Positions 1,491-28,576 of a stretch of DNA of 64,000 bases are shown piece by piece. Source of the DNA: Snodgrassella gandavensis (GTDB lineage: Bacteria; Pseudomonadota; Gammaproteobacteria; Burkholderiales; Neisseriaceae); the NCBI RefSeq assembly GCF_914768025.1, contig NZ_CAJZCE010000005.1, positions 1-64,000 of the forward strand, written 5' to 3'. Positions within the stretch are counted from its first letter, which is position 1, and every line of letters starts with the position of its first letter. Both the position numbers and the translations under genes were made by a program. Below the pieces are notes generated by a model. That model was given only the letters and a program-made list of their open reading frames with translations. It made no database searches and was not told the DNA's origin.

Positions 1491-1886
1491 TCAGTATATA
1501 TTAAAATCTATATCAGCATTGATACTTGCTATGAATTTCAATACATCTGGTTTTAACCGCATTACAGGATATTCATCATTTTCTAAACGAATAACTACAT
1601 CAAAAAGCATATCTATATTTAGCTCAGACCTTATTCGATTTAGAATATCTTCTTTACCTTGTATTAAACCAATTATTTTTTTTAATTGAATATTAATATC
1701 GTCTGATTTTTCATAGCCAGTGTCTATACGCCATTTTGTCTCTACTGCCGGCCAATTTTTTCCTTCAGGAACAATCCCCTTGATTATTGTACTATTTGGA
1801 AGAACATTTAAAAGATCAGTTATAGCACTCGGTTGAAAATGTTCACCATAAATGTCAAAAGCAACTTCCACGGATGTCGTTTCCAT
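1491..1886 (-). CDS. DUF4279-family immunity protein, partner of Rhs1
   Basis: This 131-aa protein starts 12 nt after the rhs stop at 1899, so the two are almost certainly co-translated. It shows the DUF4279 layout (EVAFDIYGEHFQPSAIT, LLNVLPNSTIIKG, ETKWRI) and is a paralogue of the gene at 720-1133. Position directly behind a toxin tip is the usual place for the cognate immunity gene. I infer that it neutralises the C-terminal domain of Rhs1. No signal peptide is visible, so a cytoplasmic site is likely. Confidence 0.8.
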   Translation of the reverse strand: METTSVEVAFDIYGEHFQPSAITDLLNVLPNSTIIKGIVPEGKNWPAVETKWRIDTGYEKSDDINIQLKKIIGLIQGKEDILNRIRSELNIDMLFDVVIRLENDEYPVMRLKPDVLKFIASINADIDFNIY

Positions 1887-1898
1887 ATTTAAATACCT

Positions 1899-4800
1899 TT
1901 ATAAAATATAACCTGTAGGGATGCCACTTTCTTTACTTCCTTTATTTCCTTTTTTTCTCAAAATCCACATCTTCCCAGATTTTTTATCGACATATATATC
2001 ATAGCGTTTAACCTCTGCTCTGTCTCCTAAAAATTCATGTTTTATCTTATGAGCATCATGACCTCTTTGCTTCAGATACCTGTCATCAACTTTTTTTAAG
2101 TCTTTAGGTTTATCCTCTCCATCATCATCATCAGGATCATCAGGATCATCATCATCAGGGAAATTTGGTGCCCCTCCTATATTTGCATCACTTATTTCAA
2201 CATCTTTAGTCTTACATTTCCCACCATCCGGTATTTTATTGTCACTAAGCGTAGGTACTGTTGGTAAAGTTGTAAGCCAACCTATAATACCCAATTTTAT
2301 TGCTTCTGTTGCCAGTTTGTTGCAAGTAGGATTTAAAGCACAGAATCGTATGCCAGCTATTCCAACCCTCACTGCTGCAGCAAGTGCTGGAACGAGCACT
2401 GGAGCAATCTCCCCAGTCGGATCACTATATACCAGTGGATTTCCACCTACATAACCATAGGTGTTTATTCCTCCCGCCAACCCTATCGGATCACTCTGGA
2501 TATACCGCCCAGTCTTGGCATCGTAATCACGGAAGTAGTTATATGACAGTCCGGTCTCTGCATCGTAGTACTGTCCCGGAAACCGCAGGTTCATGGTGAT
2601 CTGGTTGTTCGCCTCCAGTTCACTGTTGCCAAATGCATCGCTATTGATTTTCCAGCTCTGTTCTCCGGCGCTGTTTATGGCCAGTTGCGGGGTGCCCAGA
2701 TGGTCGCTTATCAGGTAATGATAGCTGGCATTTTTCAGGGTCTGACCTTCGTTTAGGTTGGCCTGCCATAAGGGGCTGGTACCCCAGTCGCTGTCTGGCT
2801 TCCAACCATACGCTACGCGCATTTTGCCATTTTGATCCAGTTCGGCTAGCAGGCCTGCGCTGCTGTAGATATAGTAGGTGGTCTCGCCGTTTACGGTTTT
2901 GCTGATACGCCGGCCAAACGGGTCGTATTGGTAGCTGGCTATTTCTCTTGTGTCGTTGCTGACTCTGCTCAGACGTTCGGCTGCGTTGTAGCTGTAGCTG
3001 AGTTTTTTATTGGCGCTTTCTTCTGTGGACAGTTGACCGTTGGCGGTATAGGTTAAGCTGGTCTGCTGTTTGCCTTCTCCCCATTTGATTAGCTGGTTGA
3101 GGTCGTTGTACTGCCACTCGCCTGCCTGCTGGGCGCTGCCTATGCGATTTCCGATGGCATCGTAGCTGTAGGATTCGGCACGCTGCTCTGTGGTTTCGCT
3201 ATCCGGTTTGACTTGGGTTAGTCTGTCCAGTGGGTCATACTGGTAGCTGCTGCTGCCTTTTTCGGTCTGGATACGGCTGATGTTGCTTACTTTGTCGTAG
3301 CTGTAGTTGCGTTCGAGTAAGGTCTGGCCTTTGCTGCTTAGTTTTATTTGTACTGGCCGCTGTAAGGCATCATAGCTGTTGGTTTGTTCTGCCTGTGGAT
3401 AGGTGATGCTGCGGGGTTGGTTCCACTGGTAGTTACGCCAGTTGATTTCTTCTCCGTTGGGCAGTACGGTTTTTTGTAGTTGGTCGTTGGCATAGCTGTA
3501 GGTTACGGTGCTGTTATCTGGATAGGTGATGCTGGCCAGATTGCCATCGGTATTGTAGCTGTATTTGAGGGTTTGCTTGAGGTTGCCATAGCTGATGGTT
3601 TCCTGCACTACTCGGCCTAATGCATCGCGCTGATAGGTGAAGTGGCTGTTGGTGCTGCCACTCTGCTGTACGTCTATCAGTTGGTTGTTGGCGTTATATT
3701 GATAGCGGACTGTCTGTTCGGCATTGTCTTGTCCAGCGGCAATGTAGTTTTGCTGGCTGATGTTGCCGGCGGCATCGTATTGATACTGTATACGATTGCC
3801 ATTGGTCTGTTTCTGTTCTATGAGCTGGTTGGCTTGGTTGTAGCTGTATTCGACATTATTGCCCAGTGTTTTGGTTTCTTTGATCAGGTTGTTGTTCTGA
3901 TCATAGGTGAAGTGATACTGGTTGCCATTGGGGTCGGTAAGGCCGGTGAGGTTGCTGAACAGGTCGTACTGGTACTGGGTTTTGCCTGCCAGTGCGTCTA
4001 TGTTTGCGCTAAGCTGACCTAGGGCGTTGTATTCGCTCTGACCGGTACGGTTGGCGGCATCAGTCTGGCTGATGAGCTGTCCCAGCTGGTCGTAGCTGCT
4101 ATGGCTGCTCAGTTGGGTGTTGTTGTCCAGCTGCTGGGTTACGCTGATGGTGTTACCCATGTTGTCGTAGGTATAGCTTTCGCTATAGGTCGGGTAGTTG
4201 ATTTTGGTCAACAGGCCGGCCTGGCTGGTACCGGGGGTGCCATATTCGTATGCTAGCTGGTTGCCGTTGTGGTCTTTATATTGGGTTAATCTGCTCCTAT
4301 TGTCATAGCTCTGCTCGCTTATCAGTCCGGATGGGCTGATGGTTTTGATGAGCCGGTTAAGCTGGTCATACTGGAGGGTGGTGATTTGATTCAGGGCGTT
4401 GCTGGCTTTTACTTCGCGTCCTTTGGCTGTGTCGCGATAGCTGTAGCTGGTGCTGTTGCCTTGGGCATCTGTTATGGCTACTACGCGACCCAATGCATCG
4501 GTTTGGATGCTGGTGCTATGGTTGAGCGGGTCGGTGATTTTGCTAGGGTAGCCGGCCGGGTTATAGTTCAGTTGCCATTTCTGCTGTAATGGGTTCTGTA
4601 TTTCGGTTGGCTTCCCCTGGATGTTATAGCTGTAGTGGTACTGCTGCCCTTTGCCGTCGGTATAGCTGGCTATGTTGCCGTAGCGGTCGAAGCTTTGTTG
4701 CAGGCTGATGCTTTGTTTGCCGCTGGCTATGGTGGCTTTGGTCTGCTGCCCCAGACTGTCGTACTCGAAGTTGACTACGCGCTGTTCGGGTTTGCCGGCG

Positions 4801-6101
4801 GCATAGGTGATTTTGGTGGGCTGGTTGGCCGCGTTGTATTCAAAGGTGATGCTGTCGCCTTTGGCGTTGGTCTGTTTTATCGGTTTGTTGGCCTGGTTGT
4901 ACTGATATTCTTCGGTGGCACCATTTGGATAGGTGATTTTAATCGGGTAGTCGGCCTGGTTATACTGGGTGGTGGTCACTAGGCCACGTTCGTCGGTGTA
5001 TTTGACGATGTTGTTGGCACTATCGCGCTGATAGCTGGCAGTGAGGCTGCCATTAATGCTTTCGCTCAGTACGCGCCCGTTGCTGTCAAATACGGTGACG
5101 GTTTTTTGGCCTGCCGGATCGTTTACGGTGATGGTGTACTGTTTGTTTACGCGGTTATATTCGGTGTTGTAGACGGTTACAGCTCCGGTTTTGCTGGTGA
5201 TTTTACCTACCCGCGCCAGTTTGTTCTCATGATCGGCTGCGCCGGTGCTGACTACGGCACTTTGCGATACAACGCCACCACTTTTGCCGCTGCCCATGGC
5301 TATTCTGCGGGTGGGTACGGAGAGGACGTAATCAATTTTGATAACGCCGCCATCGGGATCGGTGCGGCTGGTGAGCTGGCCGTTGTTGTCGTAACCATAC
5401 TTCCACACGTTACCCATGACGTCGGTAACTTGGGTTAGGCGATCTCCTGACCAGTTATAGCTCACGCTACGCCCGCTGCGGTCGGTGGCTTTGATCAGGT
5501 GTTCTTGGTTATCATAATCCAGGCTGTATACCAGTTCGCCGTTGTGGTCTTTGATGGCGCTGCGCCGGCCATCTTTGTCCAGTTCAAAGCTGACTTGTAT
5601 GTTGCTGGCATTGCCATAGGCTAATGGCCGCCCTTTGCTGTCGTAGTTTATCCAGTTGCCTTGCGGATCTGTCCAGCGCCAGCCGTTGTCGGTTTTTTTG
5701 ATTGTGACTTGTTTGTAGGTATATAAGTCGGCGTCGCCGCTACGCTGGTACAGGGTACCGGCGCGGTCGATGGTTTTGATACTGCTATCGAGTGGATCGA
5801 GTACGAAGCGTAGTTCTGCCCATGCCGGATTAAGGTACCAGCGTCCGTTTTCCCAGGTACGGTTGAGTTTAACTTCGCCACCTAATACCTTCACTCGCAT
5901 GTCTATGGTGTTTTCGGTGTACTCGGTATTCGGTAATCTGACGCTGGCATTGCTTACGCCGGATATTTTTTGGCTATTATCTGTTATGCGGGCATAAGCC
6001 ATTTGTGGCAGTGCCATGACCAGCATAAGGATATAGCTGATTACCCGGAACAGCCGGTCTTTTAAGCTGTTCCTGGGTCGTATGGTATTTTTTGTTTTCA
6101 T
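1899..6101 (-). CDS. Full-length Rhs/YD-repeat toxin with Sec signal peptide (Rhs1)
   Basis: This is a 1400-aa protein. Residues 1-38 form a signal peptide (basic start, hydrophobic ISYILMLVMALPQMAYA). An N-terminal domain (VRLPNTEYTENTIDMRVKVL) follows, then dozens of YD repeats and the Rhs core end DPIGLAGGINTYGYVGGNP near residue 1230. After the core come a hydrophobic linker, an Asp-rich spacer and a small tip of about 80 residues ending GIPTGYIL. The tip resembles small RNase-type polymorphic toxins, but I cannot name the family. No PAAR, VgrG or other T6SS domain is present, so export through Sec is the reading from sequence. The immunity gene follows at 12 nt. The core is nearly identical to the fragments at 111, 9648 and 12624. 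Confidence 0.9.
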   Translation of the reverse strand: MKTKNTIRPRNSLKDRLFRVISYILMLVMALPQMAYARITDNSQKISGVSNASVRLPNTEYTENTIDMRVKVLGGEVKLNRTWENGRWYLNPAWAELRFVLDPLDSSIKTIDRAGTLYQRSGDADLYTYKQVTIKKTDNGWRWTDPQGNWINYDSKGRPLAYGNASNIQVSFELDKDGRRSAIKDHNGELVYSLDYDNQEHLIKATDRSGRSVSYNWSGDRLTQVTDVMGNVWKYGYDNNGQLTSRTDPDGGVIKIDYVLSVPTRRIAMGSGKSGGVVSQSAVVSTGAADHENKLARVGKITSKTGAVTVYNTEYNRVNKQYTITVNDPAGQKTVTVFDSNGRVLSESINGSLTASYQRDSANNIVKYTDERGLVTTTQYNQADYPIKITYPNGATEEYQYNQANKPIKQTNAKGDSITFEYNAANQPTKITYAAGKPEQRVVNFEYDSLGQQTKATIASGKQSISLQQSFDRYGNIASYTDGKGQQYHYSYNIQGKPTEIQNPLQQKWQLNYNPAGYPSKITDPLNHSTSIQTDALGRVVAITDAQGNSTSYSYRDTAKGREVKASNALNQITTLQYDQLNRLIKTISPSGLISEQSYDNRSRLTQYKDHNGNQLAYEYGTPGTSQAGLLTKINYPTYSESYTYDNMGNTISVTQQLDNNTQLSSHSSYDQLGQLISQTDAANRTGQSEYNALGQLSANIDALAGKTQYQYDLFSNLTGLTDPNGNQYHFTYDQNNNLIKETKTLGNNVEYSYNQANQLIEQKQTNGNRIQYQYDAAGNISQQNYIAAGQDNAEQTVRYQYNANNQLIDVQQSGSTNSHFTYQRDALGRVVQETISYGNLKQTLKYSYNTDGNLASITYPDNSTVTYSYANDQLQKTVLPNGEEINWRNYQWNQPRSITYPQAEQTNSYDALQRPVQIKLSSKGQTLLERNYSYDKVSNISRIQTEKGSSSYQYDPLDRLTQVKPDSETTEQRAESYSYDAIGNRIGSAQQAGEWQYNDLNQLIKWGEGKQQTSLTYTANGQLSTEESANKKLSYSYNAAERLSRVSNDTREIASYQYDPFGRRISKTVNGETTYYIYSSAGLLAELDQNGKMRVAYGWKPDSDWGTSPLWQANLNEGQTLKNASYHYLISDHLGTPQLAINSAGEQSWKINSDAFGNSELEANNQITMNLRFPGQYYDAETGLSYNYFRDYDAKTGRYIQSDPIGLAGGINTYGYVGGNPLVYSDPTGEIAPVLVPALAAAVRVGIAGIRFCALNPTCNKLATEAIKLGIIGWLTTLPTVPTLSDNKIPDGGKCKTKDVEISDANIGGAPNFPDDDDPDDPDDDDGEDKPKDLKKVDDRYLKQRGHDAHKIKHEFLGDRAEVKRYDIYVDKKSGKMWILRKKGNKGSKESGIPTGYIL

Positions 6102-6139
6102 GTTATGACCCTTGTATTTAGTTGGTTTTTAGTTGTTAG

Positions 6140-6205
6140 TTATCTGGATCCGCTACTAAAGCTGCTGTCTCCTCCAGCCCAGTCCCAGCCAGTATTTGCA
6201 GTAAA
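6140..6205 (-). pseudogene. C-terminal remnant of an Ig-like companion gene
   Basis: Read on the minus strand, this stretch gives TANTGWDWAGGDSSFSSGSR and a stop, 38 nt upstream of the Rhs1 start. It matches the Gly/Ser-rich C-terminus (KNTSWGWAGGGS) of the 1283-aa protein that precedes Rhs2 at 23883-27677, at the same place relative to its rhs gene. The rest of the gene is gone. This suggests Rhs1 once sat in the same companion-Rhs-immunity arrangement. Confidence 0.6.
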
Positions 6206-6713
6206 GATACGGATATATATAATTATTTTATATGCATAAGAATAATAAATAGATTATATTAATTTTTTATTTAATATAAAAAATATTATCAATTTATTTG
6301 CTGATAAAATAATTTAGTACAATATAAAACATTGACACGGTATTTTTATTCACTATTTTTCCAAATATAGAAAATCAGTTAGAAGAATATATCTTCCTAT
6401 ATGTTTTTTAATATTATGTTGTAGTGGTTAAATTTGTTATGTTATATGATTTTTTAAAAGATAAACCTCTAGCAAGAATAAATTATATATATTAATGTAC
6501 CCTGCTAAAGTTTTATAAAAATTTCTGGTTATAGATAGATTAATTCTAGGCATTGATCTTTATTAATAACAAATAGTGATACTCGGAATTCTATGCCGTA
6601 GTTCTTGAAGCTTGGGATATCCTCTCGTTTCATTTTTTTCTTAATTGCCTTTTCAAACATGAATTAAAAAATACATCTTCTATTTTATTCAAAATTCTTT
6701 AAACCTAAATAAA
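6206..6713. other. AT-rich spacer upstream of Rhs1, no gene seen
   Basis: About 500 bases of strongly AT-rich DNA separate the companion remnant from the next immunity gene. I see no open frame with coding character. The promoter that now drives Rhs1 should lie here, but many TATAAT-like sequences occur and none can be singled out. Confidence 0.5.
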
Positions 6714-7343
6714 TTAATTTTTGAATTCTTTTTTAGATTTAAAATGCTCTAGCTCTATATTATATTTTCCATAATAATCTTTAAATCTTTCTCTATCATA
6801 GAGTCGTTTATAAAGATATTCTCGTCCATATATGGCATTATTTATATCTTTATGAGCGAATCCCTCTTTTTCCCAGTCACGAAGTATAAATAACTGTTTC
6901 TTTTCTTCATCTGATAGCATATTGAGTTTTTTGATCAATATATTTTCCTGAGAACGAGTATCCATATTATAATGCCATATATATATACTTTTTATTTCAT
7001 TATCAATTTCCTTACTATGAGTTAAATTTTCACGGAAATTATTGTCAGCCAAAACCTGTCTGGCATAGCGAGCCAAGCAAAAGCGATGGGGTCTTTTCCA
7101 GTCTTCTGGTTTCTCCAACTGAGTAATAAACTTCTCGGCCAGCTCAAACCATTGCTTACGCTCTATATCGGAGTCTAAAATTTGGAAACTGAAAGATTTA
7201 TAAGACTCCCATGTATCTTTCCTTTTCACGATTACATGTAGATAAAGATTGTCTCCGGCTTTATTAAGGTAACAAACAATGGCTGCGAAATAATTATTTT
7301 GCGCCAGACACAGTCCTGTAAACTTATCTTGTTTATTGTCCAT
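6714..7343 (-). CDS. Immunity-like protein, triplicated family, copy 1
   Basis: This 209-aa protein belongs to a family present three times in a row here (6714, 7375, 8558). Shared blocks are NNYFA near the N-terminus, RKDTWESY, W...A..FI.QL, KPEDWKRPHRFCLARYARQVL, LIKKLN.L..DEKKQLFILRDWE and GREYLYKRLYD. It has no signal peptide or membrane segment. I do not recognise a named family. Its place downstream of an Rhs tip (9153-9647) and its short-cassette style suggest an immunity protein. Thirty-one bases separate it from copy 2, so the two are probably co-transcribed. Confidence 0.7.
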   Translation of the reverse strand: MDNKQDKFTGLCLAQNNYFAAIVCYLNKAGDNLYLHVIVKRKDTWESYKSFSFQILDSDIERKQWFELAEKFITQLEKPEDWKRPHRFCLARYARQVLADNNFRENLTHSKEIDNEIKSIYIWHYNMDTRSQENILIKKLNMLSDEEKKQLFILRDWEKEGFAHKDINNAIYGREYLYKRLYDRERFKDYYGKYNIELEHFKSKKEFKN

Positions 7344-7374: not shown

Positions 7375-7983
7375 TTAAAATAACTTATCTTTTCTTTTAA
7401 AATCTTCCAGTTCTTTCATATATTTCTCATAATCTTTTTTTACTATTTCTTTATTATATAAGAAATAGTAAAAACTTTCACGACCACAAACAGCATAAAA
7501 CACATCCTCACAAGCGAATGCTTCTTTTTCCCAATCACGAAGTATGAATAACTGTTTTTTTTCTTCATCTGGTAACAAATTTAGTTTTTTGATTAATGCG
7601 GTTTCTTTTAACCGCGAAATGATGGTATAGCGATAGATATATTCATCATCAATATCCTTATTATAAACTAAATCTTCCCGAAAATTGTCATCTTCCAAAA
7701 TCTTTCTGGCATAACGCGCCAGACAAAAACGATGCGGTCTTTGCCAATCTTCCGGTTTATCTAACTGGTTAATAAAGTTCTCGGCTTGTTCAGACCATTG
7801 TGCGCAATCCACATCCGAGATAATATCCCGCCATCTGATAAAATCCGCCTGTCCAACTAAATTTTCACAAAATCCATAAGATTCCCATGTATCTCTTCTA
7901 TACACTTTTCCAGAGGTAGAAACAGCAAAATAATTATTTTTCGCCAGATACTTTGTTTGCAACTCATTTACCCTATCATTCAT
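7375..7983 (-). CDS. Immunity-like protein, triplicated family, copy 2
   Basis: This 202-aa paralogue of the 6714 and 8558 genes keeps the KPEDWQRPHRFCLARYARKIL block and the DEKKQLFILRDWEKE block. It differs most between residues 25 and 60 (RRDTWESYGFCENLVGQ), a possible specificity region. It is soluble by appearance. A 574-base spacer holding a strong terminator separates it from copy 3, so copies 1 and 2 need their own promoter. The immunity role is inferred from neighbourhood only. Confidence 0.7.
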   Translation of the reverse strand: MNDRVNELQTKYLAKNNYFAVSTSGKVYRRDTWESYGFCENLVGQADFIRWRDIISDVDCAQWSEQAENFINQLDKPEDWQRPHRFCLARYARKILEDDNFREDLVYNKDIDDEYIYRYTIISRLKETALIKKLNLLPDEEKKQLFILRDWEKEAFACEDVFYAVCGRESFYYFLYNKEIVKKDYEKYMKELEDFKRKDKLF

Positions 7984-12636: not shown

Positions 12637-14603
12637 TTTCTAACCCACTTTCCTGTTCGTATTCTCATATTCGTATTAGCACGAGTGTTTGTCCATTGTG
12701 TTACATGCTCTCCTTTAGATGTTTCAATTACTACCCGATTTCCTGATATATAAACATTATTTCCTGTTTTACTATCACGATATAATTTTCCTTCCCTTTT
12801 AATTCTATTTATATCCCCAACTTGTCTGTGTTTATCAGTACGAGCTTGCTCTTTTCTCATTTTACCATGCTTTGTATATTTATTTGAATTTTTTGACTTA
12901 TTATTTTTATCAGGATCATCTGGTGGTGGTGGAACTGCTCCTGTGCCACTAGAATTATTTGGATTATTTACTTCAACAGTACTATCTTCACACTTCTCTC
13001 CGTTACTAATATCTTCACTTAGTGAAGGAAACTGAAGTTCTGGTACATTAAATCTGCTATTTATGTTTGGATATAAGCCAAATTGCGCATTTGGCAATGA
13101 TTTATTACATACAGGAGTCAGTATACATACTGCTACAACGAATGCAGCAGCTACTGCCACAGGTACCATTACCTGAGCAAATTCCCCAGTCGGATCACTG
13201 TATACCAGCGGATTCCCACCTACATAACCATAGGTGTTTATTCCTCCCGCCAACCCTATCGGATCACTCTGGATATACCGCCCAGTCTTCGCATCGTAAT
13301 CACGGAAGTAGTTATATGACAGTCCGGTCTCTGCATCGTAGTATTGTCCCGGAAACCGCAGGTTCATGGTGATCTGGTTGTTTGCCTCCAGTTCACTGTT
13401 GCCAAACGCATCGCTATTGATTTTCCAGCTCTGTTCTCCAGCGCTGTTTATGGCCAGTTGCGGGGTGCCCAGATGATCGCTTATCAGGTAGTGATAGCTG
13501 GCATTTTTCAGGGTCTGACCTTCGTTCAGGTTGGCCTGCCATAAGGGGCTGGTACCCCAGTCGCTGTCTGGTTGCCAACCGTACGCTACGCGCATTTTGC
13601 CATTCTGATCCAGTTCGGCTAACAGGCCTGCGCTGCTGTAGATATAGTAGGTGGTTTCGCCGTTTACGGTTTTGCTGATACGCCGGCCAAACGGGTCGTA
13701 TTGGTAGCTGGCTATTTCTCTTGTGTCGTTGCTGACTTTGCTCAGACGTTCGGCTGCGTTGTAGCTGTAGCTGAGTTTTTTATTGCCACTTTCTTCTGTG
13801 GACAGTTGGCCGTTGGCGGTATAGGTTAAGCTGGTCTGCTGTTTGCCTTCTCCCCATTTGATTAGTTGGTTGAGGTTGTTGTACTGCCACTCGCCTGCCT
13901 GCTGGGCGCTGCCTATGCGGTTTCCGATGGCATCGTAGCTGTAGGATTCGGCACGCTGCTCTGTGGTTTCGCTATCCGGTTTGACTTGGGTTAGTCTGTC
14001 CAGTGGGTCATACTGGTAGCTGCTGCTGCCTTTTTCGGTCTGGATACGGCTGATATTGCTTACTTTGTCGTAGCTGTAGTTACGTTCCAGTAAGGTCTGG
14101 CCTTTGCTGCTTAGTTTTATTTGTACTGGCCGCTGTAAGGCATCGTAGCTGTTGGTTTGTTCTGCCTGTGGATAGGTGATGCTGCGAGGCTGGTTTCACT
14201 GGTAGTTACGCCAGTTGATTTCTTCTCCGTTAGGCAGTACGGTTTTTTGGCCTGCCGGATCGTTTACGGTGATGGTGTACTGTTTGTTTACGCGGTTGTA
14301 TTCGGTGTTGTAGACGGTTACAGCTCCGGTTTTGCTGGTGATTTTGCCTACCCGCGCCAGTTTGTTCTCATGATCGGCTGCTCCGGTGCTGACTACGGCA
14401 CTTTGCGAGACAACGCCACCACTTTTGCCACTGCCCATGGCTATTCTGCGGGTGGTACGGAGAGGACGTAATCAATTTTGATAACGCCGCCATCGGGATC
14501 GGTGCGGCTGGTGAGCTGGCCGTTGTTGTCGTAACCATACTTCCACACGTTACCCATGACGTCGGTAACTTGGGTTAGGCGATCTCCTGACCAGTTATAG
14601 CTA
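12624..14603 (-). pseudogene. Truncated Rhs core with intact basic toxin tip
   Basis: The open frame runs from about 14190 to 12624 and holds the core end (DPIGLAGGINTYGYVGG), the linker (VMVPVAVAAAFVVAVCILTP), a Pro/Asp spacer, and a basic tip (KHGKMRKEQARTDKHRQVGD, then YISGNRVVIETSKGEHVTQW). The tip recalls BECR-fold RNases, but this is a weak call. Upstream, a TGG-to-TGA stop (about 14193), a one-base loss (about 14453) and a 1632-bp internal deletion break the gene. At 14603 it is cut by an IS end. Without signal peptide and N-terminus it cannot act as an exported toxin, but it can donate its tip by recombination. Confidence 0.85.
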
Positions 14604-16830: not shown

Positions 16831-16881
16831 GGCAATAGTGACAAGAATGACGTTCTTGCAATTGCACAGCCCAAGCTTTAC

Positions 16882-16909
16882 GTGCCTTGATAGGCACTAT
16901 AGCTTTTTT
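16882..16909 (-). promoter_or_regulatory. Programmed -1 frameshift signal (A6G plus hairpin)
   Basis: On the minus strand AAAAAAG occurs just before the orfA stop and is followed by a small hairpin GTGCC-TATCAA-GGCAC. This is the usual arrangement for making the OrfAB fusion in IS3 elements. The signal looks intact although orfB is not. Confidence 0.65.
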
Positions 16910-18946: not shown

Positions 18947-19024
18947 AGTTGGTTTGTTAGGATCAGCCTTTCTTTTTGATCGAGCAGCCCGAGCTCTTGG
19001 ATTAGAACTTCATTCTATTTATGT

Positions 19025-19059: not shown

Positions 19060-19476
19060 TTAACTCACTATATTTTGGTCAATATCTCCTGTCAGATAAA
19101 ACTCATTAAAAGCTTTTCTGACCAAGGAAAAATCTTCAGTGATTATTGAATTATCCCATAAATCCCCCAAGAGATATAATTCTCCTGGCGTACGCGTATT
19201 ATCATAAAAAGTTCTTACTTCTACACCATCATCAACTTCCGGATTTGATTTTCCAAACATAACCAGATATTTTTGTTTTTCTGCATAAAGCGTTAACCTA
19301 AAAGGAATATTACCTTCCTCTTTATTTTGTTCTAAATCTAGAACGCCAGTATTTGATACAAATAAATCCAGAGAATTATTTATATCTTCTATTGTCGGAT
19401 TAAGGTTAACAATACTTTTATCATAATCATATATCCTACCATAAAACGTTCCATTAAATTTAAATCTATTTACCAT
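19060..19476 (-). CDS. Immunity protein for the Rhs2 deaminase tip
   Basis: This 138-aa protein overlaps the end of Rhs2 by 7 nt, so it is translated with the toxin. It is a paralogue of the 18219 gene and differs mainly at the segments FYGRIYDYDKSIV and YDNTRTPGELYLLGD. An acidic, soluble protein expected to bind and block the deaminase in the cytoplasm. The family could be Imm1-like; not certain. Confidence 0.8.
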   Translation of the reverse strand: MVNRFKFNGTFYGRIYDYDKSIVNLNPTIEDINNSLDLFVSNTGVLDLEQNKEEGNIPFRLTLYAEKQKYLVMFGKSNPEVDDGVEVRTFYDNTRTPGELYLLGDLWDNSIITEDFSLVRKAFNEFYLTGDIDQNIVS

Positions 19477-22400
19477 TTTGGAGTCTCCGTTATCTTAAAT
19501 CTTGCCATACCAGCTTCCCATTCATACAATTTATAAGACTTGTCAGTCTCTGCATATATTTTCAATGAGTTAAGTTTTGATGCTTTTGCCATTGCAACTA
19601 TATCCGTTTGACAATAACCACAAACATCTTTTCCTGTCACTTTCATAACTGCATCAGCACCTTCAGTTAAGCCTTTATTCGCAGCCTGTTGTAATGCACC
19701 TACTTCTGCATGTGCGTTACCCATATGACTATTTGGAAATGGTCTTCCATCTTTTGATTTCTTATCGCCTATTTTATCTCGTATCAAAGTTGGTTTATTA
19801 GGATCAGCCTTTCTTTTTGATCGAGCAGCCCGAGCTCCTGGATTATAATCTTTAAATGTTCTACCACCAATTTTTAATTCAGCTGTAACAATAGGTTTTC
19901 TTGCAGCCTTAGCAGCTTTGTATGCAGTTACGTATGGAGAAAGCTTTTTAACAACATACCCAGCGCCTTTAGTAATGCCTTTTTCAACAAATTTAAAGCC
20001 TACCATTACACCGGCAACCTGACCTACATTATACCAACCTGAACAGTCATCAACACTACCTATATCATATTCTTTTCTAATCCATTTGGTTGCTCCTAAT
20101 GATACTACGTCGCCAAATCCCGCAGAGAAGTTACTTGCATCATCAATAAAATGAGGCCATGAATACAACCCATACGGATCCATGTATATTAATGGATTGG
20201 CATTAGCATAGCCATACAGATTCAGTCCACCTATCACCCCTAGTGGATCAGCTTCTATATAGCGACCTGTTTGCGGGTTATAGTGTCTGGCTAGGTTGTA
20301 ATATAAGCCGCTTTCCTGATCATAATACTGTCCTGGCTGGCGCAAATTCAGGGTAATCTGGTTATCTGGATCCAGTTGGGTATTACCAAAGGCATCGGCA
20401 ATGCCTTTCCATGTCTGCTGCCCTCTTGAATTTACTGCCAGCTGCGGAGTACCCAGATAATCGGTTATCAGGTAGTGATAGTCTGCGTTTTTTAAGGTTT
20501 GGTTATTGTCCAGACTGGCCTGCCACAATGGGCTGCTTCCCCATACGGTATCCGGCATCCAGCCATACGCTACCTGCATTGTGCCATTCTGATCCAGCTC
20601 GCCTATCAGGCCTTCATCGCTATACAGGTAATAGGTAGTTTCGCCATTTACTGTTTTGCTGATGCGGCGGCCAAACGGGTCGTACTGGTAGTGTGCTTTT
20701 TCTGTATCATCGTCCTGAATGCTGATCAATTGATTGATACTATCGTACTGATAGCTGCGCTGTTTACCATTTAGCTGTTCGCTAATTAAGTTGCCGGTGG
20801 CATCATAGCTCAGTGCTGTCTGCTGCTTACCCGCGCCCCATTGGACTAGCTGACCATTGCTGTTGTATTGCCATTCTCCTGTTTGATGAGCGCTACCGGT
20901 ACGATTACCGGTGGCATCATAGCTATAGGATTCTACCGGCAAGCCTTTTCGTTGCAGGCTTTGATCTGGGTTGACTTGTGTTAAGCGATCCAATGCATCG
21001 TAGCGATAATCGATAATACCTTGTTCAGTATTACTCTGAATAATATTGCCAGATTTGTCGTACTGATAATCACGCTGGAGCAGAACTTTGTTATCTGCAT
21101 TGGTAACCCGTATACTCAGTGGCTGCTGTAATGCGGTATAGGTCATGCTGGTTTTGCTGCCCGGAGCGGTAATGCTTTCAGGCTGATTCCAGCGATAACT
21201 ATCCCAGGTTATTTGTTCGCCATTGGGTAGCTGTACTTGTTGCAGTTGTCCTTGTGCATAATGATATTGAACTACGCTGTTATCTGGATAGGTAATGCTG
21301 GCCAGATTGCCATCAGCATCATAGCTATACTGCAATTCTTTGCTTATTTTTTGGTTATTGCTCTGATAGGTAATGGTTTCTTTGATTCTGCGACCAAGTT
21401 TGTCCAGTACGTAGTTAAAGCTGCTTTGGGTATCGCCAACCTGGTTCACACCGGTAAGCTGGCCGGCATCGTTGTAACTATAGGTGATGCGCTGTTCAGC
21501 AGTAGTCTGGCCTTTGGCAAAATAGCTTTCTTCAATCAGGTTGCCTGTTTGATCATATTGATAATGTATTTCGTTACCATTGGCATCTTTCTGAGCAATA
21601 AGCTGATCAACAGTGTTGTAAATATATTCTGTCTGATTACCTGATGCTCCTGTTTCTTTAATCAGGTTACCATTGTTGTCATAGCTGAATGTGTAGCTAC
21701 GGCCGCCTGGATCAGTAATACTCTCCAGATTGCCCATTTCATCCCAGCTATTGCTGATTTCTCCACCCAGTGCATCTATGGTTTTGATGATATTGCCATA
21801 GGCGTCATAACGAGCCATGAAAGTACTGCCATCGGGATTGGTAATACTAGCTGGCAGTCCTTGCTCGTTATAACTGATGCTGGTCATCAAACTGATATTG
21901 TTATCCAGTACCTGACTGACACTGGTGGGTAGGCCTATGGTATTGTAGTTATATGTTTCGGTGTAGGTTGGATACAGGGTTTTAACAATCAGGCCGTCCA
22001 GACCACTGCCTTTGTTGCCATACTCTACGGATGTGATGTTTCCGGCACTATCTTGTTGGCTTTTGGGTCTGCCCTGTTTATCGTAGCTTTGTTTAATTTC
22101 CAAACCAGACGGCGATATAACACTAACTGGATTTCCGGCCAGATCATAGTTATAGGTGTAGGTCTGATTCAGTGCATCAGTAGCCTTGACCTGCCAGCCC
22201 TGACTATTGTACTGATAGCTGTAATTGGTGGTATTACCCATTGAATCTGTTATCTGAGTAATCCGCCCTAGGGCATCACTAGTATATTTTGTTATCCGTC
22301 CCTGTGGGTCGATAGCTTGCTCGGGAATACCAGCTGCATTGTAGTTTAGTTGCCAAATATTATTTGCTGGTGTTTTAACACTGGTTACTTGTCCCTGAAC

Positions 22401-23834
22401 ATTGTGGGTAAATTGATAGGTATTACCGTTAGCATCGGTGTAACTGCTAATATTTCCATATTTATCCAAGGTTTGTTGCAAATTTATTATCTGCTTTTTA
22501 CCAGATTTTATGCCATTAGCTTGACCATACTGATCATACTCCCACGATATGATGCGCTGTTCTGGTTTTCCTTTCGCCTGAATAATTTGAGTTACTTTAT
22601 TTTGATCGTTATATTGCAATTCAGTTACATTACCACCAGCATCGATATGCTTAGTTAACATACCTTTAGTGTTGTACTGGTAATTTTCTGTGCTGCCATC
22701 TGCTGCAATAATTTTGATTGGACGTTCTTCACTATCTTTTTGAACAATAGTTGCAATACCACGTTCATTAAAAATTTTTACCTGATTGGTAGCAGTATCC
22801 TGTTCATAGCGCAGCTTAAGTTCGTTATTAACAGTTTTCGATAACTGGCGACCTTGTGAATCAAATACATTTACTGTTTTAATACCGAGTGGATCAGTAA
22901 CGGTAATGGTGTACTGTTTGTTAACACGGTTATATTCGGTGTTATATACAGTTACTGCACCAGTTTTCGCTGTAATTTTGCCTACCCGCGCCAGTTTGTT
23001 TTCATGATCAGCCGCACTGGTGTTGACTACGGTGCTTTGGGATATTTTGCCTCCATTTCTGCCACTATCCATAAACATATGAAGTGACGGGACTGATAAA
23101 ACATAATCAATTTTGGTGATGCCGCCATCGGGTTCGGTTTTGCTATTGAGTTGGCCGTTTTTATCGTAACCATACTTCCACACATTACCCATGACATCAG
23201 TAACTTTGGTCAGCTGGTCACCAGACCAGCTATAGCTAACGCTACGCCCACTGCGGTCGGTGGCTTTGATCAGGTGTTCCTTATTATCATAGTCAAGACT
23301 ATAAACCAGCTCACCGTTGTGGTCTTTAATGGCTTTGCGCCGGCCATCTTTATCCAGCTCAAAGCTGACTTTAACATTACTGGCATTGCCATAGTCCAGT
23401 GGCCGCCCTTTGCTGTCATAGTTAATCCAGTTTCCCAGCATATCTGTCCAGCGCCAGCCACTATCAGTTTTTCTGATTGATACCTGATGGAAGGTATATA
23501 GATCAGCCGTCCCACTGCGCTGGTATAGCGTACCGGCACGGTCGATGGTTTTGACGCTATTATCGAGAGGATCGAGCACAAAGCGCAGTTCTGCCCACGC
23601 CGGATTCAGATACCAGCGTCCATTTTCCCAGGTACGCTTTAACTTTACCTCACCACCAAGTACTTTAACCCGCATATCCACGGTATTTTCAGTGTATTCA
23701 GTATTTGGTAATCTGACACTGGCATAGGCTATTTGTGACAGTGTTATAAGCAGCATAATAATGAAACTGCCGGTAATACTAAGCAGCTTATCGACCGCCC
23801 TGATTCGGTGGCGTTTTGTATTTTTTATTTTCAT
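19470..23834 (-). CDS. Full-length Rhs/YD-repeat toxin with deaminase tip (Rhs2)
   Basis: This 1454-aa protein has a signal peptide at residues 1-38 (FIIMLLITLSQIAYA) with cleavage likely after AYA. The N-terminal domain is shared with Rhs1, then come many YD repeats and the core end DPLGVIGGLNLYGYANANP. A pre-toxin domain (FSAGFGDVVSLGATKWIRKE) and a C-terminal cytidine-deaminase-type toxin with HAEV and CGYC zinc motifs complete it. The predicted activity is base deamination in a target cell. There is no PAAR or VgrG part. It is fourth-to-last in an apparent operon: rhodanese, Ig-like protein, Rhs2, immunity. The core is visibly more diverged from Rhs1 than the Rhs1-type fragments are from each other. 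Confidence 0.9.
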   Translation of the reverse strand: MKIKNTKRHRIRAVDKLLSITGSFIIMLLITLSQIAYASVRLPNTEYTENTVDMRVKVLGGEVKLKRTWENGRWYLNPAWAELRFVLDPLDNSVKTIDRAGTLYQRSGTADLYTFHQVSIRKTDSGWRWTDMLGNWINYDSKGRPLDYGNASNVKVSFELDKDGRRKAIKDHNGELVYSLDYDNKEHLIKATDRSGRSVSYSWSGDQLTKVTDVMGNVWKYGYDKNGQLNSKTEPDGGITKIDYVLSVPSLHMFMDSGRNGGKISQSTVVNTSAADHENKLARVGKITAKTGAVTVYNTEYNRVNKQYTITVTDPLGIKTVNVFDSQGRQLSKTVNNELKLRYEQDTATNQVKIFNERGIATIVQKDSEERPIKIIAADGSTENYQYNTKGMLTKHIDAGGNVTELQYNDQNKVTQIIQAKGKPEQRIISWEYDQYGQANGIKSGKKQIINLQQTLDKYGNISSYTDANGNTYQFTHNVQGQVTSVKTPANNIWQLNYNAAGIPEQAIDPQGRITKYTSDALGRITQITDSMGNTTNYSYQYNSQGWQVKATDALNQTYTYNYDLAGNPVSVISPSGLEIKQSYDKQGRPKSQQDSAGNITSVEYGNKGSGLDGLIVKTLYPTYTETYNYNTIGLPTSVSQVLDNNISLMTSISYNEQGLPASITNPDGSTFMARYDAYGNIIKTIDALGGEISNSWDEMGNLESITDPGGRSYTFSYDNNGNLIKETGASGNQTEYIYNTVDQLIAQKDANGNEIHYQYDQTGNLIEESYFAKGQTTAEQRITYSYNDAGQLTGVNQVGDTQSSFNYVLDKLGRRIKETITYQSNNQKISKELQYSYDADGNLASITYPDNSVVQYHYAQGQLQQVQLPNGEQITWDSYRWNQPESITAPGSKTSMTYTALQQPLSIRVTNADNKVLLQRDYQYDKSGNIIQSNTEQGIIDYRYDALDRLTQVNPDQSLQRKGLPVESYSYDATGNRTGSAHQTGEWQYNSNGQLVQWGAGKQQTALSYDATGNLISEQLNGKQRSYQYDSINQLISIQDDDTEKAHYQYDPFGRRISKTVNGETTYYLYSDEGLIGELDQNGTMQVAYGWMPDTVWGSSPLWQASLDNNQTLKNADYHYLITDYLGTPQLAVNSRGQQTWKGIADAFGNTQLDPDNQITLNLRQPGQYYDQESGLYYNLARHYNPQTGRYIEADPLGVIGGLNLYGYANANPLIYMDPYGLYSWPHFIDDASNFSAGFGDVVSLGATKWIRKEYDIGSVDDCSGWYNVGQVAGVMVGFKFVEKGITKGAGYVVKKLSPYVTAYKAAKAARKPIVTAELKIGGRTFKDYNPGARAARSKRKADPNKPTLIRDKIGDKKSKDGRPFPNSHMGNAHAEVGALQQAANKGLTEGADAVMKVTGKDVCGYCQTDIVAMAKASKLNSLKIYAETDKSYKLYEWEAGMARFKITETPKW

Positions 23835-23882: not shown

Positions 23883-26800
23883 TTAACATCCGCCATTACT
23901 GGCTCCATCGCTAGCGCAAGGTGCATCAGGTGTACAGCCTGGAGTAATAGGCATTGCTGATGGTGAACCGGCCCCACTGCTACCAAAGCTGCCGCCACCA
24001 CCGCCTAGTGAACCACCGCCAGCCCAACCCCAGCTGGTATTTTTGGTAGAACATTTTTTACCGGTGTACTGATAAAAACGTCCGCTGCTGCTGCCTTTGG
24101 AAATGTCACCAGTGGGGCACTCACTTTGGTGTGTTTCTTGATAGCTGGCTTCGTAAGAAGTACAGTCATCGTTATCATCCGCTGGTGCTGAGCGTAATAA
24201 ACTTGCCTTTGGGCTGGTTCTGGTTTGTGCAGATGCCGACTGTTTGGGATCCAGAGCGGTTACTTTATAGGAAATAACTACTTTTTCTTTTGGCTTGAGT
24301 ACGCTGGGCACTTCCCCAAAAAATTCATACTTAAATCTGGAATCTGTTTTAGGCAGATTTAAAACAACATTATCGGCCTGTACTAATCCATAGTTACTTA
24401 CTGTAATCTGGCCAGTTTTTTCTTCGCCAACCTGCATACCACCAAGGTTGATGGATAGTGGCTCCAGCAGGATTACCGGTGCTGGTACCTGTGTATTAAA
24501 GGAGGCGTTCACATTAATGTCATAGACATCTTTTATGGTGGTTTCGGTTACATTAAACTCGACATTTATTGTTTGATATTCCAGAAAAACGTGCTGGTTA
24601 GTGGTGCTGTCGGGCTGAATAACTATACGGCCGCTGGCATCCATATGATTGGGTGCACTAACGCGGTAGCGGTAGATACCTGCTGGCAATTTACTTAATG
24701 AAGCAATACCATCTTTATCGGTATTGAGGGTATACTGTTCAGTTAGTACGCTATCATTCTGCAATTTGATGGTTGCCCCTTTAACGCCTTTAATCAGCTG
24801 GCCTTGTGCATCCAGTGTAGCGGTATAAATATCAGCCACATCAAACTGGACAATGCCCTGTCCACTCTGGGTAACAGAGATGCTTACCGGAATGGTGCCG
24901 GAAAGTTTGCCGCCTGTAGACACTCTGATGATAAAGTTGTAGATGCCATCTGCAATGCTGTTATCTGGTTGTGCCATGATTTGCACGGGTACTTTTTCAT
25001 CTACCGCAATGGCATCAATATTTTTATCACTGGCAATAAATACCCAGCTCGGTGCAGGATTACCCTGTTTATCTACCAGCTCTATCTGAACATTTTCAGC
25101 TTTCGCCAAACCTTTATTGCCTACGCTGACATTGGCTGTGGTACTTGTATTCTGCTGTAAGCCAGTCTGGATATAGCTTGGAGATGCATACAGATCGGGC
25201 ATGGGCTGGCCAAGCTGATAATTAATCTGTAATTTACCCCGTACCAGATCACCTGAATCTTCGGCGAAAGCAACCAGATACAAGCTACCTTTTTCGGCAG
25301 CATTGTTATCCGCAGTAAATTTAATCGTTGTAGTGCGGCTTTGGCCGGGCGCAATATCTACTGCTTCAGACTGGATATTAATGCCCTGTGGCAATACACC
25401 ATCTGGCTGATTTTCAGGTGCAAGCACCCAGCGCAATTTTTTCGCACCGGTACTGGCTGTAGCATTAATCTGTATCGGTGTGGTAATGGTACGCGGAGCT
25501 TTGAGCTGATAGCCCTGAATATTAAAGGCAACCCGGTTAATGGCAAAGCTGCCCTGATGGGTAACAGTTTTTTCGTCAGGATGAATAATGCCTACCTGAT
25601 AAGTTCCCGTATCAGACTCTTGAGGAGTAAAGGTATAGGAAAAATGGCCAGTTTCATCTGTGGCAACTGCAATTTTTCGCTCAAAGCCTTTTACATTCAA
25701 TACCAGCTTCAGTGGAACACTGGCTGCAGCCGTATTATCAGCACGATACAGTGCCTGACCAGCAATGGTAACTGGCTGCGGACCATAGCTAACAGCCGGG
25801 CTGATTGTAGTAATTTTACCGGTATAAGGTGTAGGTGGTGGTGCCGGCGGTTCTATTTTGACCTTGACGGTGCGTGTACTGGTAACTATTTTGCCGCTGG
25901 TATTGGTGACTTTTGCCGTTAGTTTATGGCTACCGTTGTCCTGCATGGTAAGTGGCCAGTGTGCCTGATAGGGGCGTTCTGTCAGTGTGGCAAAGCGTTT
26001 GTCATCAACCAGCAGCTCAACTTTTTCGATACCCAGTTCGTCTGCTGCATCTACCTGAATATCTACCGGAGCGGCAAGGGTTTGATTATCGCCGGGTGTG
26101 GTAATCATGCCTGTGGGTATTGGCAAGGCAAAATCAAATGTTACTGCTGCACTGGGCTCACTGCGGCCATAATTATTTTGCCCGATAGCATGCAAGCGGT
26201 AACTGCCCTCTTTGCTTAACTGGATATCCTGATTAAAATAGCCTTGGGTATTCACAGCTACAGGCTGGCCAACCGGTTGGTCATTCAGATATAACTGCAC
26301 TTTACTACCCGATTCGGCTGTACCCTGAACCTTTAATTGGGCGGTTTTAACCTTTGTCTGGGTAACCGGACTGATCAGTACTGGCGGTGTAACCACAATA
26401 GCCGCTGCCTGAGTGTAGTCAGAGATGTTACCGGCTTTATCAACTGCATTCAGGCGGGCATATAACGAACCAGTAGATGGCATATTATCAATCTGCACAC
26501 TATTGGCTTGAACATTAATATCCTGATCCACCAATGGCTGATTAAAATCAGGATTATTTGCTATCTGTAGGTGTACTGAAGCAATCCCACTCAGGTTATC
26601 GCTGCTGTTGTAACCAATTCGCACCGCATTCTCATTGACGCGATTAAATTTATTCAGTTCAACAACTGGCTTGGTAGTATCAATCGTTGTGGTGCCAGAT
26701 CGTGCAGACCATGGCTCCCATGTATCGCCGTTATTAATACTTCCTCTTACTCGGGCACGATAAGATTTGCCATTCTGTAAACCATCATTGAAAGTAAACT

Positions 26801-27677
26801 GATTGATATTATTCAGTAGTTCTTTATGAACGGAATTACCGGAAGCATCCTGAATTTCTATTTCCCAAGTATTAAGTGTATCAATGTTCTTCCATGACCA
26901 GGCTGGTGGCTGATTGCTATATCGGGCAGCCGGTTTTGGCGCAGGTGGCGTTAAACCCGAAATATCAATAAATTCGTATTCGGCATTTTCATCTTTACTG
27001 TAATCCGTTAAATCACTATTAGGCGTAAATAAAATTGCCTGTTCTGGCTTGATTGTATCAGCCTTATTACAGCCTATCTGCACATTGCTTGGCCGCACCC
27101 CCTGTATACCAATGGTAGCTTCTTTGCCTTTACTGCGACCATCATTTAATGAGCGATATTGATATTTAATCTGGTTTGAGCCTTCATAAAGAATAGCCTG
27201 AAATGTGCCCATAGGCAGATTGGAGCCATAAAAATACTGATTTGTCCATTGAACAATTAGTTTTCTTTCGGGTGCTTCACCCTGCATTTCGTATTTAATG
27301 GTTCCTTTAGTTTTCCCGGCAACGTTCGTTCTTAAATCATCCCAGAATACATACAATGTATTATTAATTGCTGGCAGGCAATAATTGCTATAACTGGTAG
27401 TTGGATTTTCAAATTGCAATAATCCATTAGTACTGACATAAAATTTATTATAATTTTTGCCATAATAATTAAAATCAAAGCCTATCGGTAATGCGCCACT
27501 GACTATATCGTCACCATTCAGACGTGTGTCGGTACCTGCATAGCTTGATGCATAGGCAATGGTGCATAACGCACAGAAAATCATTACGTATGTTTTTTTC
27601 TGCTTATTTTTATGCTCTTGTTGTTTATTCCGACTTAAACCGGGAAACCGGTTTTTCCAGTATTGATAAATATTCAT
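23883..27677 (-). CDS. Large secreted Ig/FN3/CARDB-like companion of Rhs2
   Basis: The ATG at 27677 has a good Shine-Dalgarno (GAGGGG, spacing 6-7) and is preferred over the ORF-track start, giving about 1264 aa. A hydrophobic segment (TYVMIFCALCTIAYASSYA) is a signal peptide. A nidogen-like beta domain follows (GFDFNYYGKNYNKFYVSTNG), then FN3-like and several bacterial Ig-like repeats (TAESGSKVQLYLNDQPVG), carboxypeptidase-regulatory-like and CARDB-like parts, and a Gly/Ser/Cys-rich end. No sortase or lipoprotein signal is seen. It lies 48 nt upstream of Rhs2, and a tail of a second copy lies before Rhs1. I infer a scaffold, adhesin or delivery partner for the exported Rhs; the function is not known. 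Confidence 0.8.
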   Translation of the reverse strand: MNIYQYWKNRFPGLSRNKQQEHKNKQKKTYVMIFCALCTIAYASSYAGTDTRLNGDDIVSGALPIGFDFNYYGKNYNKFYVSTNGLLQFENPTTSYSNYCLPAINNTLYVFWDDLRTNVAGKTKGTIKYEMQGEAPERKLIVQWTNQYFYGSNLPMGTFQAILYEGSNQIKYQYRSLNDGRSKGKEATIGIQGVRPSNVQIGCNKADTIKPEQAILFTPNSDLTDYSKDENAEYEFIDISGLTPPAPKPAARYSNQPPAWSWKNIDTLNTWEIEIQDASGNSVHKELLNNINQFTFNDGLQNGKSYRARVRGSINNGDTWEPWSARSGTTTIDTTKPVVELNKFNRVNENAVRIGYNSSDNLSGIASVHLQIANNPDFNQPLVDQDINVQANSVQIDNMPSTGSLYARLNAVDKAGNISDYTQAAAIVVTPPVLISPVTQTKVKTAQLKVQGTAESGSKVQLYLNDQPVGQPVAVNTQGYFNQDIQLSKEGSYRLHAIGQNNYGRSEPSAAVTFDFALPIPTGMITTPGDNQTLAAPVDIQVDAADELGIEKVELLVDDKRFATLTERPYQAHWPLTMQDNGSHKLTAKVTNTSGKIVTSTRTVKVKIEPPAPPPTPYTGKITTISPAVSYGPQPVTIAGQALYRADNTAAASVPLKLVLNVKGFERKIAVATDETGHFSYTFTPQESDTGTYQVGIIHPDEKTVTHQGSFAINRVAFNIQGYQLKAPRTITTPIQINATASTGAKKLRWVLAPENQPDGVLPQGINIQSEAVDIAPGQSRTTTIKFTADNNAAEKGSLYLVAFAEDSGDLVRGKLQINYQLGQPMPDLYASPSYIQTGLQQNTSTTANVSVGNKGLAKAENVQIELVDKQGNPAPSWVFIASDKNIDAIAVDEKVPVQIMAQPDNSIADGIYNFIIRVSTGGKLSGTIPVSISVTQSGQGIVQFDVADIYTATLDAQGQLIKGVKGATIKLQNDSVLTEQYTLNTDKDGIASLSKLPAGIYRYRVSAPNHMDASGRIVIQPDSTTNQHVFLEYQTINVEFNVTETTIKDVYDINVNASFNTQVPAPVILLEPLSINLGGMQVGEEKTGQITVSNYGLVQADNVVLNLPKTDSRFKYEFFGEVPSVLKPKEKVVISYKVTALDPKQSASAQTRTSPKASLLRSAPADDNDDCTSYEASYQETHQSECPTGDISKGSSSGRFYQYTGKKCSTKNTSWGWAGGGSLGGGGGSFGSSGAGSPSAMPITPGCTPDAPCASDGASNGGC

Positions 27678-27715
27678 TGTGTGCCCCTCATTGGTCAGAA
27701 AGCTCCTTAAATAAG

Positions 27716-28576
27716 TTATATGGTTAACCGGCAAGGTCTAGATAGGCTTTGTCCGGCATGTTTGATTAATTTTGTTTGTTGTTGTACATAGTGCTGATAA
27801 GCTGCTATTCCCCCTCGCAACCAAATAACATTGGCCGAATCGGCAAAACTGATTTGCTGTTGCAACCTTTTTAAAGTCTGCTCATCCGGGCTAATTAGTA
27901 CGTAGCGGATAAAATCATCACTGCTTTTAGCGTTATTGCGGATAAACTGCTTCAGCGCTGATGCTGTTATTTGTGTCAGTGCAAATTGTTTAACCGGCTG
28001 TTCAGGTAATGTAGCTAATTGTTCAGCATTTAGGCCTAGCGTAATAATCTGCCAGTGAATGGTTTTGCCTCCGGATAAAAATTCTTCCGCAGAAATTTCC
28101 TGCTGGCGCGACTGTGCGGGCTGGTGTAATTTTTGCCACTCATAAATGCCACCATTTAAAGCAAAAGTATGCTTAAAGCCTTTTTTTCTTAAACGGTTAA
28201 TGGTCTGATTAACTGATAGCTGATCAAACCCGCTTCCAAGCAGAATAACGGGTTTATCAAACAAAAATTGGGCACCAGACAACTGGTGAAGCGGAATAGC
28301 CAGCATATCCAGCCCGGATTCTTTGTTCTTGATGCCAGACCTCACATCCACCCAGACAGCATGCTGCAACTGTTGCTGACTCAACTGCTGTATGGTTAGC
28401 CAATTTTTTTTATCTAGCGGCTGTTTATTGCGGTTATCAGGCCAGCTTATAGCTACAGGCAATATTGTCGGATCAGGCTCATTATTCTGGCAGGCAGTAA
28501 AATCCTGCGCGAATATCTGGGCGCTAATAAAAAATAATAATCCGAAAAATACAATAATCTGTTTTAATTTCAGCAT
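27716..28576 (-). CDS. Secreted tandem rhodanese-like protein, catalytically degenerate
   Basis: This 286-aa protein starts with a signal peptide (IIVFFGLLFFISAQIFA). Two rhodanese folds follow. The first has WVDVRSGIKNKESGLDMLAI and GGIYEWQKL; the second has YVLISPDEQ and WLRGGIAAYQHY. The active-site loop that should read CxxGxR is LGSGFDQ in the first copy, and no Cys is seen in the second. Sulphur transfer is therefore unlikely and a binding role more likely. It is first in the operon, 38 nt before the Ig-like gene, which suggests a periplasmic helper of the Rhs module. Confidence 0.75.
   Translation of the reverse strand: MLKLKQIIVFFGLLFFISAQIFAQDFTACQNNEPDPTILPVAISWPDNRNKQPLDKKNWLTIQQLSQQQLQHAVWVDVRSGIKNKESGLDMLAIPLHQLSGAQFLFDKPVILLGSGFDQLSVNQTINRLRKKGFKHTFALNGGIYEWQKLHQPAQSRQQEISAEEFLSGGKTIHWQIITLGLNAEQLATLPEQPVKQFALTQITASALKQFIRNNAKSSDDFIRYVLISPDEQTLKRLQQQISFADSANVIWLRGGIAAYQHYVQQQTKLIKHAGQSLSRPCRLTI

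What the first reader, a model, noticed from the sequence alone, without database searches (positions are those of the whole stretch)
6140..6205. Tail of a second Ig-like companion upstream of Rhs1
A 20-codon piece ending GSR-stop matches the Gly/Ser-rich C-terminus of the Rhs2 companion and sits at the same position relative to Rhs1. It supports a conserved companion-Rhs pair and shows that Rhs1 has lost its partner.
Basis: seen in the sequence. Interest (0 to 1): 0.65.

Follow-up and report, generated by a model that had tools for sequence, protein, structure and literature searches.

The report
Decayed companion-gene tail before Rhs1
In a bee-gut Snodgrassella, the last scrap of a large secreted "companion" gene still sits in front of an Rhs toxin gene, showing that this toxin once had the companion its relatives still have; it is a modest trace of known toxin-locus shuffling.

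Summary
Window 6140-6205(-) encodes FTANTGWDWAGGDSSFSSGSR-stop, 38 nt before the Rhs1 start. The 21-residue peptide alone is at chance level (E 0.6); the DNA is not (score 41.5 vs shuffle mean 19.4, sd 3.3, 0 of 1000). Two relatives decide it. Snodgrassella App4-8 (G002) carries a longer, differently decayed copy before the same Rhs gene (79.5 vs 26.3, sd 3.7). Snodgrassella WF3-3 (G004) has a full companion directly before an Rhs1-type gene (97% over the N-terminus), with matching spacer DNA.

The remnant lacks the conserved MPITPGCTPDAPC segment, most simply through an in-frame 87-nt loss between 9-bp direct repeats. All ten full companions examined sit just 5' of an Rhs gene, as do distant homologues in two other gammaproteobacteria, so a companion-Rhs pair is supported.

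"Rhs1 has lost its partner" needs qualifying: a full companion persists 17.8 kb upstream, now paired with Rhs2. Its tail and Rhs2 diverge far more than its body, which favours displacement of Rhs1 over simple loss. This extends documented Rhs C-terminal displacement in Snodgrassella by one gene. Modest interest.

The parts
6140..6205 (-). Decayed 3' end of a companion gene (21 codons + TAA: FTANTGWDWAGGDSSFSSGSR*), with an internal in-frame loss of about 29 codons relative to full companions; no ATG in the open stretch
6102..6139 (-). 38-nt spacer between remnant stop and Rhs1 ATG, near-identical to the spacer between the full companion and the Rhs1-type gene in G004 (same length)
6206..6700 (-). 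AT-rich (79%) stretch upstream of the remnant with no detectable companion homology; presumed decayed DNA
1899..6101 (-). Rhs1: 1400 aa, apparent N-terminal signal sequence, RHS repeats, C-terminal Ntox33 (PF15533)
1491..1886 (-). Probable Rhs1 immunity gene, DUF4279 (PF14106)
   Evidence: role inferred from position
23883..27734 (-). Full companion (open frame 1283 aa; likely start MNIYQYWK at 27677): signal-like N-terminus, nidogen-like, Big_7 Ig-like, CarboxypepD_reg domains, Gly/Ser/Cys-rich tail
19470..23834 (-). Rhs2: 1454 aa, RHS repeats, C-terminal deaminase-like domain (PF24241)
19060..19476 (-). Probable Rhs2 immunity gene, DUF6911 (PF21852)
   Evidence: role inferred from position
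13175..14602 (-). RhsX: decayed second Rhs1-type gene, 5'-truncated at Rhs1 nt 640 and with an internal deletion (Rhs1 nt 1004 to 2626); 97-98% identical to Rhs1
   Evidence: about the same 5' truncation point in G008

Best explanation
The piece is a pseudogene remnant: the decayed 3' end of a companion gene that once stood directly before Rhs1, as a full companion still does in sister Snodgrassella. Shown: homology of the remnant to companion tails, shared spacer, a longer decayed copy in App4-8, and a full companion before an Rhs1-type gene in WF3-3. Inferred: (a) an 87-nt in-frame loss between two AGCGGAGCC-like repeats in the tail, shared by both remnants, so it predates their divergence or spread by recombination; (b) the bulk of the gene then went because newer Rhs units recombined into the locus through the companion's 3' end. 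The companion body stayed with the incoming Rhs (now Rhs2), while the old tail stayed attached to the pushed-aside Rhs1. In working pairs the companion is probably a secreted Ig-like surface protein that presents or helps deliver the Rhs toxin cage; Rhs1 is now either a reserve toxin unit that could borrow the distant companion, or on its way to decay.
For: Remnant vs tails: 41.5 vs 19.4 +/- 3.3, 0/1000; G002 remnant 79.5 vs 26.3 +/- 3.7, 0/1000. G004: companion 94% identical over residues 1-1281, Rhs N-terminus 97% identical to Rhs1, spacer and gene start 93% identical over 89 nt, E 2.7e-32. G004 tail holds AGCGGAGCC twice, 87 nt apart; collapse gives the remnant layout ...AGC GGA xCC AxA TAA. 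Eight of ten strong Rhs1-class genes in the genus have a full companion and the two that do not (G000 Rhs1, G002 C52) carry the remnant and coexist with a companion-Rhs2 pair. The G000 companion body is 90-97% identical to G004 and G008 in most windows, then falls to 68-70% (G004) at the tail and 75-82% in the Rhs start, while G002 stays at 99-100% there: a recombined tail+Rhs2 segment. All ten full companions lie just 5' of an Rhs gene; distant homologues in G318 and G154 also abut an Rhs gene.
Against: No strain examined has a full companion at exactly this downstream position, so the order of events is inferred. The remnant upstream of its internal deletion resembles the G000 Rhs2-type tail (G002 copy: 79.5) more than the G004 tail (53.5), so a tail-to-tail recombination rather than a pure deletion is possible. 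The fall in identity at the tail could partly be fast evolution of a Gly/Ser-rich tail, although the drop continues into Rhs. The window starts at a contig end, so the far side of Rhs1 is unseen.
Confidence: 0.85

Rival explanations
1. Tandem duplication and decay: the whole companion-Rhs1 pair was duplicated, or a second pair was imported whole, and the second companion then eroded in place down to its tail.
For: G002 keeps a longer remnant with scattered stops and indels instead of a clean junction; a second, decayed Rhs1-type copy (RhsX, 97-98% identical) lies between Rhs2 and Rhs1.
Against: No further companion fragments were found: blastn of the companion against the window gave only itself, and the own-genome search gave one match. 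Rhs1 itself is intact while 98% of the companion is gone.
Confidence: 0.33
2. The Rhs1 unit moved in as a mobile segment whose boundary fell inside a companion tail, so no full companion ever stood at this site.
For: Snodgrassella Rhs loci are documented to exchange segments between strains (PMC5727410, PMC8125069); IS3-like transposase genes lie at 16174-17145; the window lies at a contig end.
Against: G002 and G000 keep different lengths of tail, so no single fixed boundary is seen. The ancestral pairing before Rhs1-type genes still holds (G004, G005, G006).
Confidence: 0.15
3. Chance similarity of a short Gly/Ser-rich stretch.
For: The peptide alone is at chance level (E 0.60) and one scoring scheme gave 25/2000.
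Against: 0/1000 shuffles for the G000 copy against its own genome's companion tail and for the G002 copy against four tails; continuous DNA identity with G004 through stop, spacer and Rhs start.
Confidence: 0.02

Closest known systems
Rhs C-terminal displacement and orphan arrays (Jackson et al. 2009; in Snodgrassella PMC5727410 and PMC8125069)
   Same: Recombination in a shared 5' region lets a new toxin unit take the first place and leaves the old parts downstream as orphans with their immunity genes; this window has such an array (RhsX, core fragments, orphan deaminase).
   Different: Here the apparent seam lies one gene further upstream, in the companion's tail, so the displaced Rhs keeps its own complete 5' end plus a scrap of the companion. 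The passages of both papers that were read do not mention a companion gene.
Sec-exported (T2SS-class) RHS polymorphic toxins (PMC3482391) and bacterial teneurin-like proteins (PMC13018210)
   Same: Apparent signal peptide, RHS/YD cage, variable C-terminal toxin domain, immunity gene directly downstream; Ig-like adhesion modules associated.
   Different: Here the Ig-like modules are on a separate, upstream-encoded protein; Pfam TEN_YD-shell matches Rhs1 below its cut-off (31.1 vs 50 bits).
T6SS Rhs effectors of Snodgrassella
   Same: RHS core, polymorphic C-terminus, immunity gene, length about 1400 aa.
   Different: No PAAR or VgrG domain found; an apparent N-terminal signal sequence instead.

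Membership tests
Remnant (pseudogene) of the Snodgrassella Rhs companion | Homology to companion C-termini above chance | tested here: met
   but peptide alone E 0.60
Remnant (pseudogene) of the Snodgrassella Rhs companion | Same position and strand relative to the Rhs start | tested here: met
   38 nt spacer, same as G004
Remnant (pseudogene) of the Snodgrassella Rhs companion | Conserved tail motif P-[IL]-[TA]-x-G-C-x-P-[DE]-A present in full companions | tested here: not met
   Motif present in all ten full companions, missing from both remnants; consistent with decay, and means it is not a working companion
Sec-exported RHS polymorphic toxin (Rhs1) | RHS repeats and a C-terminal toxin domain | tested here: met
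   PF05593 1.4e-98, Ntox33 1.9e-11
Sec-exported RHS polymorphic toxin (Rhs1) | N-terminal signal peptide | tested here: inconclusive
   Hydrophobic stretch ending AYA read by eye; no signal-peptide predictor available
Sec-exported RHS polymorphic toxin (Rhs1) | Immunity gene directly downstream | tested here: inconclusive
   DUF4279 gene 12 nt downstream; neutralisation not testable here
T6SS Rhs effector | PAAR domain or fused VgrG | tested here: not met
   no such Pfam match in Rhs1 or Rhs2 at E <= 0.001
C-terminal displacement locus | Full Rhs first, then orphan core fragments, toxin ends and immunity genes downstream | tested here: met

The most novel reading that the evidence does not exclude
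The companion gene acts as a single shared docking gene: successive Rhs units capture it by recombination in its Gly/Ser-rich 3' end, so each genome keeps one companion that serves whichever Rhs is first, and displaced Rhs genes keep a scrap of tail as a scar. The companion would then be a broadly compatible presentation or delivery partner of Rhs toxins.
Probability: 0.35. Interest if true: 0.5.

Novelty: new member of a known kind. Interest (0 to 1): 0.27.

Why it matters
The scar is independent evidence that an Ig-like secreted companion and an Rhs with an apparent signal peptide form a unit, and it places a recombination seam in the companion gene. It points to a testable question: whether the companion is needed for Rhs toxins of this class to act, and whether one companion can serve several Rhs proteins. 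By itself the remnant is a small pseudogene.

Tried and rejected
Peptide-only BLASTP of the remnant (chance level). First DNA scoring scheme (25/2000 shuffles reach the observed score), superseded by a gapped scheme and by comparative evidence. Search for more companion sequence upstream of 6205: nothing above noise. Promoter-like sites before Rhs1: 6 found against 5.4 expected, uninformative; no terminator-like site. Exact search for the remnant core in viral contigs: none. dN/dS of the Rhs1 core against G004 (0.159 overall, 0.067 over the first 440 codons, against 0.09-0.13 for other pairs) gives no clear sign of relaxed selection. Literature searches found no description of this companion, but only open-licence papers were searchable. 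The first 60 bases of the DNA query were typed in the wrong orientation; only matches to its bases 60-225 are used.

Full report
Observation. On the minus strand, 6205-6140 reads FTANTGWDWAGGDSSFSSGSR and a TAA, 38 nt before the ATG of Rhs1 at 6101. The Rhs2 companion ends ...CSTKNTSWGWAGGGSLGGGGGSFGSSGAGSPSAMPITPGCTPDAPCASDGASNGGC, 48 nt before Rhs2. The peptide is too short and too biased in composition to be significant alone (E 0.60). The DNA alignment is significant when gaps are allowed at moderate cost: 41.5 against 19.4 +/- 3.3, 0 of 1000 dinucleotide shuffles; with a stiffer scheme, 25 of 2000 shuffles reached the score.

Relatives decide it. The window comes from a Snodgrassella (bee-gut Neisseriaceae): the closest named loci are S. 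alvi App4-8, S. communis LMG 28360, Nev4-2, wkB298 and WF3-3. In App4-8 (G002, contig C52) the same Rhs1 gene (99% N-terminus) is preceded by a longer decayed copy of the tail, alignable over about 120 nt from the codons for SSSGRF onward, with stops and indels (79.5 against 26.3 +/- 3.7, 0 of 1000). Both copies share the junction AGCTTTAGTAGC/GGATCCAGATAA. In WF3-3 (G004, contig C59) an Rhs1-type gene (97% over the first 259 residues) stands directly behind a full companion that is 94% identical to the Rhs2 companion, with the same spacer length and 93% DNA identity over 89 nt across tail end, spacer and gene start. G005 and G006 also have a full companion before an Rhs with an 87% identical N-terminus, and the G005 companion ends in GSR, like the remnant.

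Internal deletion. Full companions carry a conserved segment, MPITPGCTPDAPC or close variants, in all ten cases. Both remnants lack it. The G004 tail holds the 9-mer AGCGGAGCC twice, exactly 87 nt (29 codons) apart, and collapse between them gives the layout of the remnant. I infer slippage or recombination between these repeats. The part of the remnant 5' of the junction is closer to the G000 Rhs2-type tail than to the G004 tail, so recombination between tail alleles is also possible.

The pair. Among the ten strong Rhs1-class genes in the genus (E below 1e-100), eight have a full companion and two have the remnant. The two genomes with a remnant also carry a companion-Rhs2 pair. The companion was found in 8 of 14 Snodgrassella genomes, in none of the other Neisseriaceae searched beyond one weak partial match, and in two Gilliamella, where it also precedes an Rhs. 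Among 369 genomes drawn from the class, four encode proteins whose C-terminal parts are 35-39% identical to residues 634-1270. In two of these (G318, G154) an Rhs gene follows immediately; in G383 the next gene is a different large protein; in G159 the contig ends. The association is therefore old and not special to bees, though not universal.

How it arose. Along the G000 companion gene, identity to G004 and G008 is mostly 90-97% in the body, then falls at the 3' end (G004: 84% at about 24200, 68-70% at the tail) and stays at 75-82% in the start of Rhs2; G002 remains at 99-100% there. Thus the tail and Rhs2 form a segment with a different history from the companion body. Downstream of Rhs2 lie an orphan deaminase end, IS3-like transposase genes, RhsX (a 5'-truncated and internally deleted Rhs1-type gene), another core fragment with its toxin end, and three similar small genes that are probably immunity genes; only then the remnant and Rhs1. 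RhsX begins at Rhs1 nt 640, about where an Rhs1-type gene is truncated in G008. The simplest reading is repeated displacement at one locus: newer Rhs units took the place next to the one companion gene, and Rhs1 with its scrap of tail was left downstream. Duplication followed by decay remains a serious rival. C-terminal displacement with orphan arrays is documented in Snodgrassella (PMC5727410, PMC8125069); what is added here is that a seam can lie in the gene before the Rhs.

Function. In intact pairs I propose, by inference only, that the companion (nidogen-like, Ig-like and carboxypeptidase-regulatory-like domains, Cys-containing Gly/Ser tail) is a secreted surface protein that presents or helps deliver an Rhs cage exported by the Sec route. 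No PAAR or VgrG domain was found. The closest described classes are Sec-exported RHS polymorphic toxins (PMC3482391) and bacterial teneurin-like proteins (PMC13018210). The remnant itself has no function that I can support: no ATG, no conserved motif, AT-rich decayed surroundings. Rhs1 is still open in this genome but has an in-frame stop at codon 440 in App4-8. A supply of companion in trans from 23883-27734 is possible and untested.

Verdict.

Noticed in passing
13175-14602 (-): RhsX: a decayed Rhs1-type gene (97-98% identical), truncated at Rhs1 nt 640 with an internal deletion bounded by an 11-nt overlap; a similar truncation point occurs in G008 (S. communis LMG 28360).
   Followed up: partly
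18629-19007 and 19470-19850 (-): An orphan second copy of the Rhs2 deaminase-like C-terminus (93% DNA identity) follows the Rhs2 immunity gene, each copy with its own DUF6911-like neighbour (19060-19476 and 18219-18635).
   Followed up: partly
6714-7343, 7375-7983, 8558-9172 (-): Three tandem paralogous genes of about 200 aa sharing motifs such as PHRFCLARYAR; no Pfam match for 7375-7983 and no NCBIfam match for 6714-7343 or 7375-7983. Probably an immunity family not yet in these libraries.
   Followed up: partly
L077 (G318), L081 (G154), L078 (G383), L080 (G159): Distant gammaproteobacterial proteins of up to about 4500 aa share the companion's C-terminal half; in G318 and G154 an Rhs gene follows directly.
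   Followed up: partly
1899-6101 compared with L053 (G002:C52): The App4-8 copy of Rhs1 has an in-frame stop at codon 440, whereas this copy is open throughout.
   Followed up: yes
16174-17145 (-): IS3-like transposase genes lie between the Rhs2 part and the Rhs1-type part of the array.
   Followed up: no
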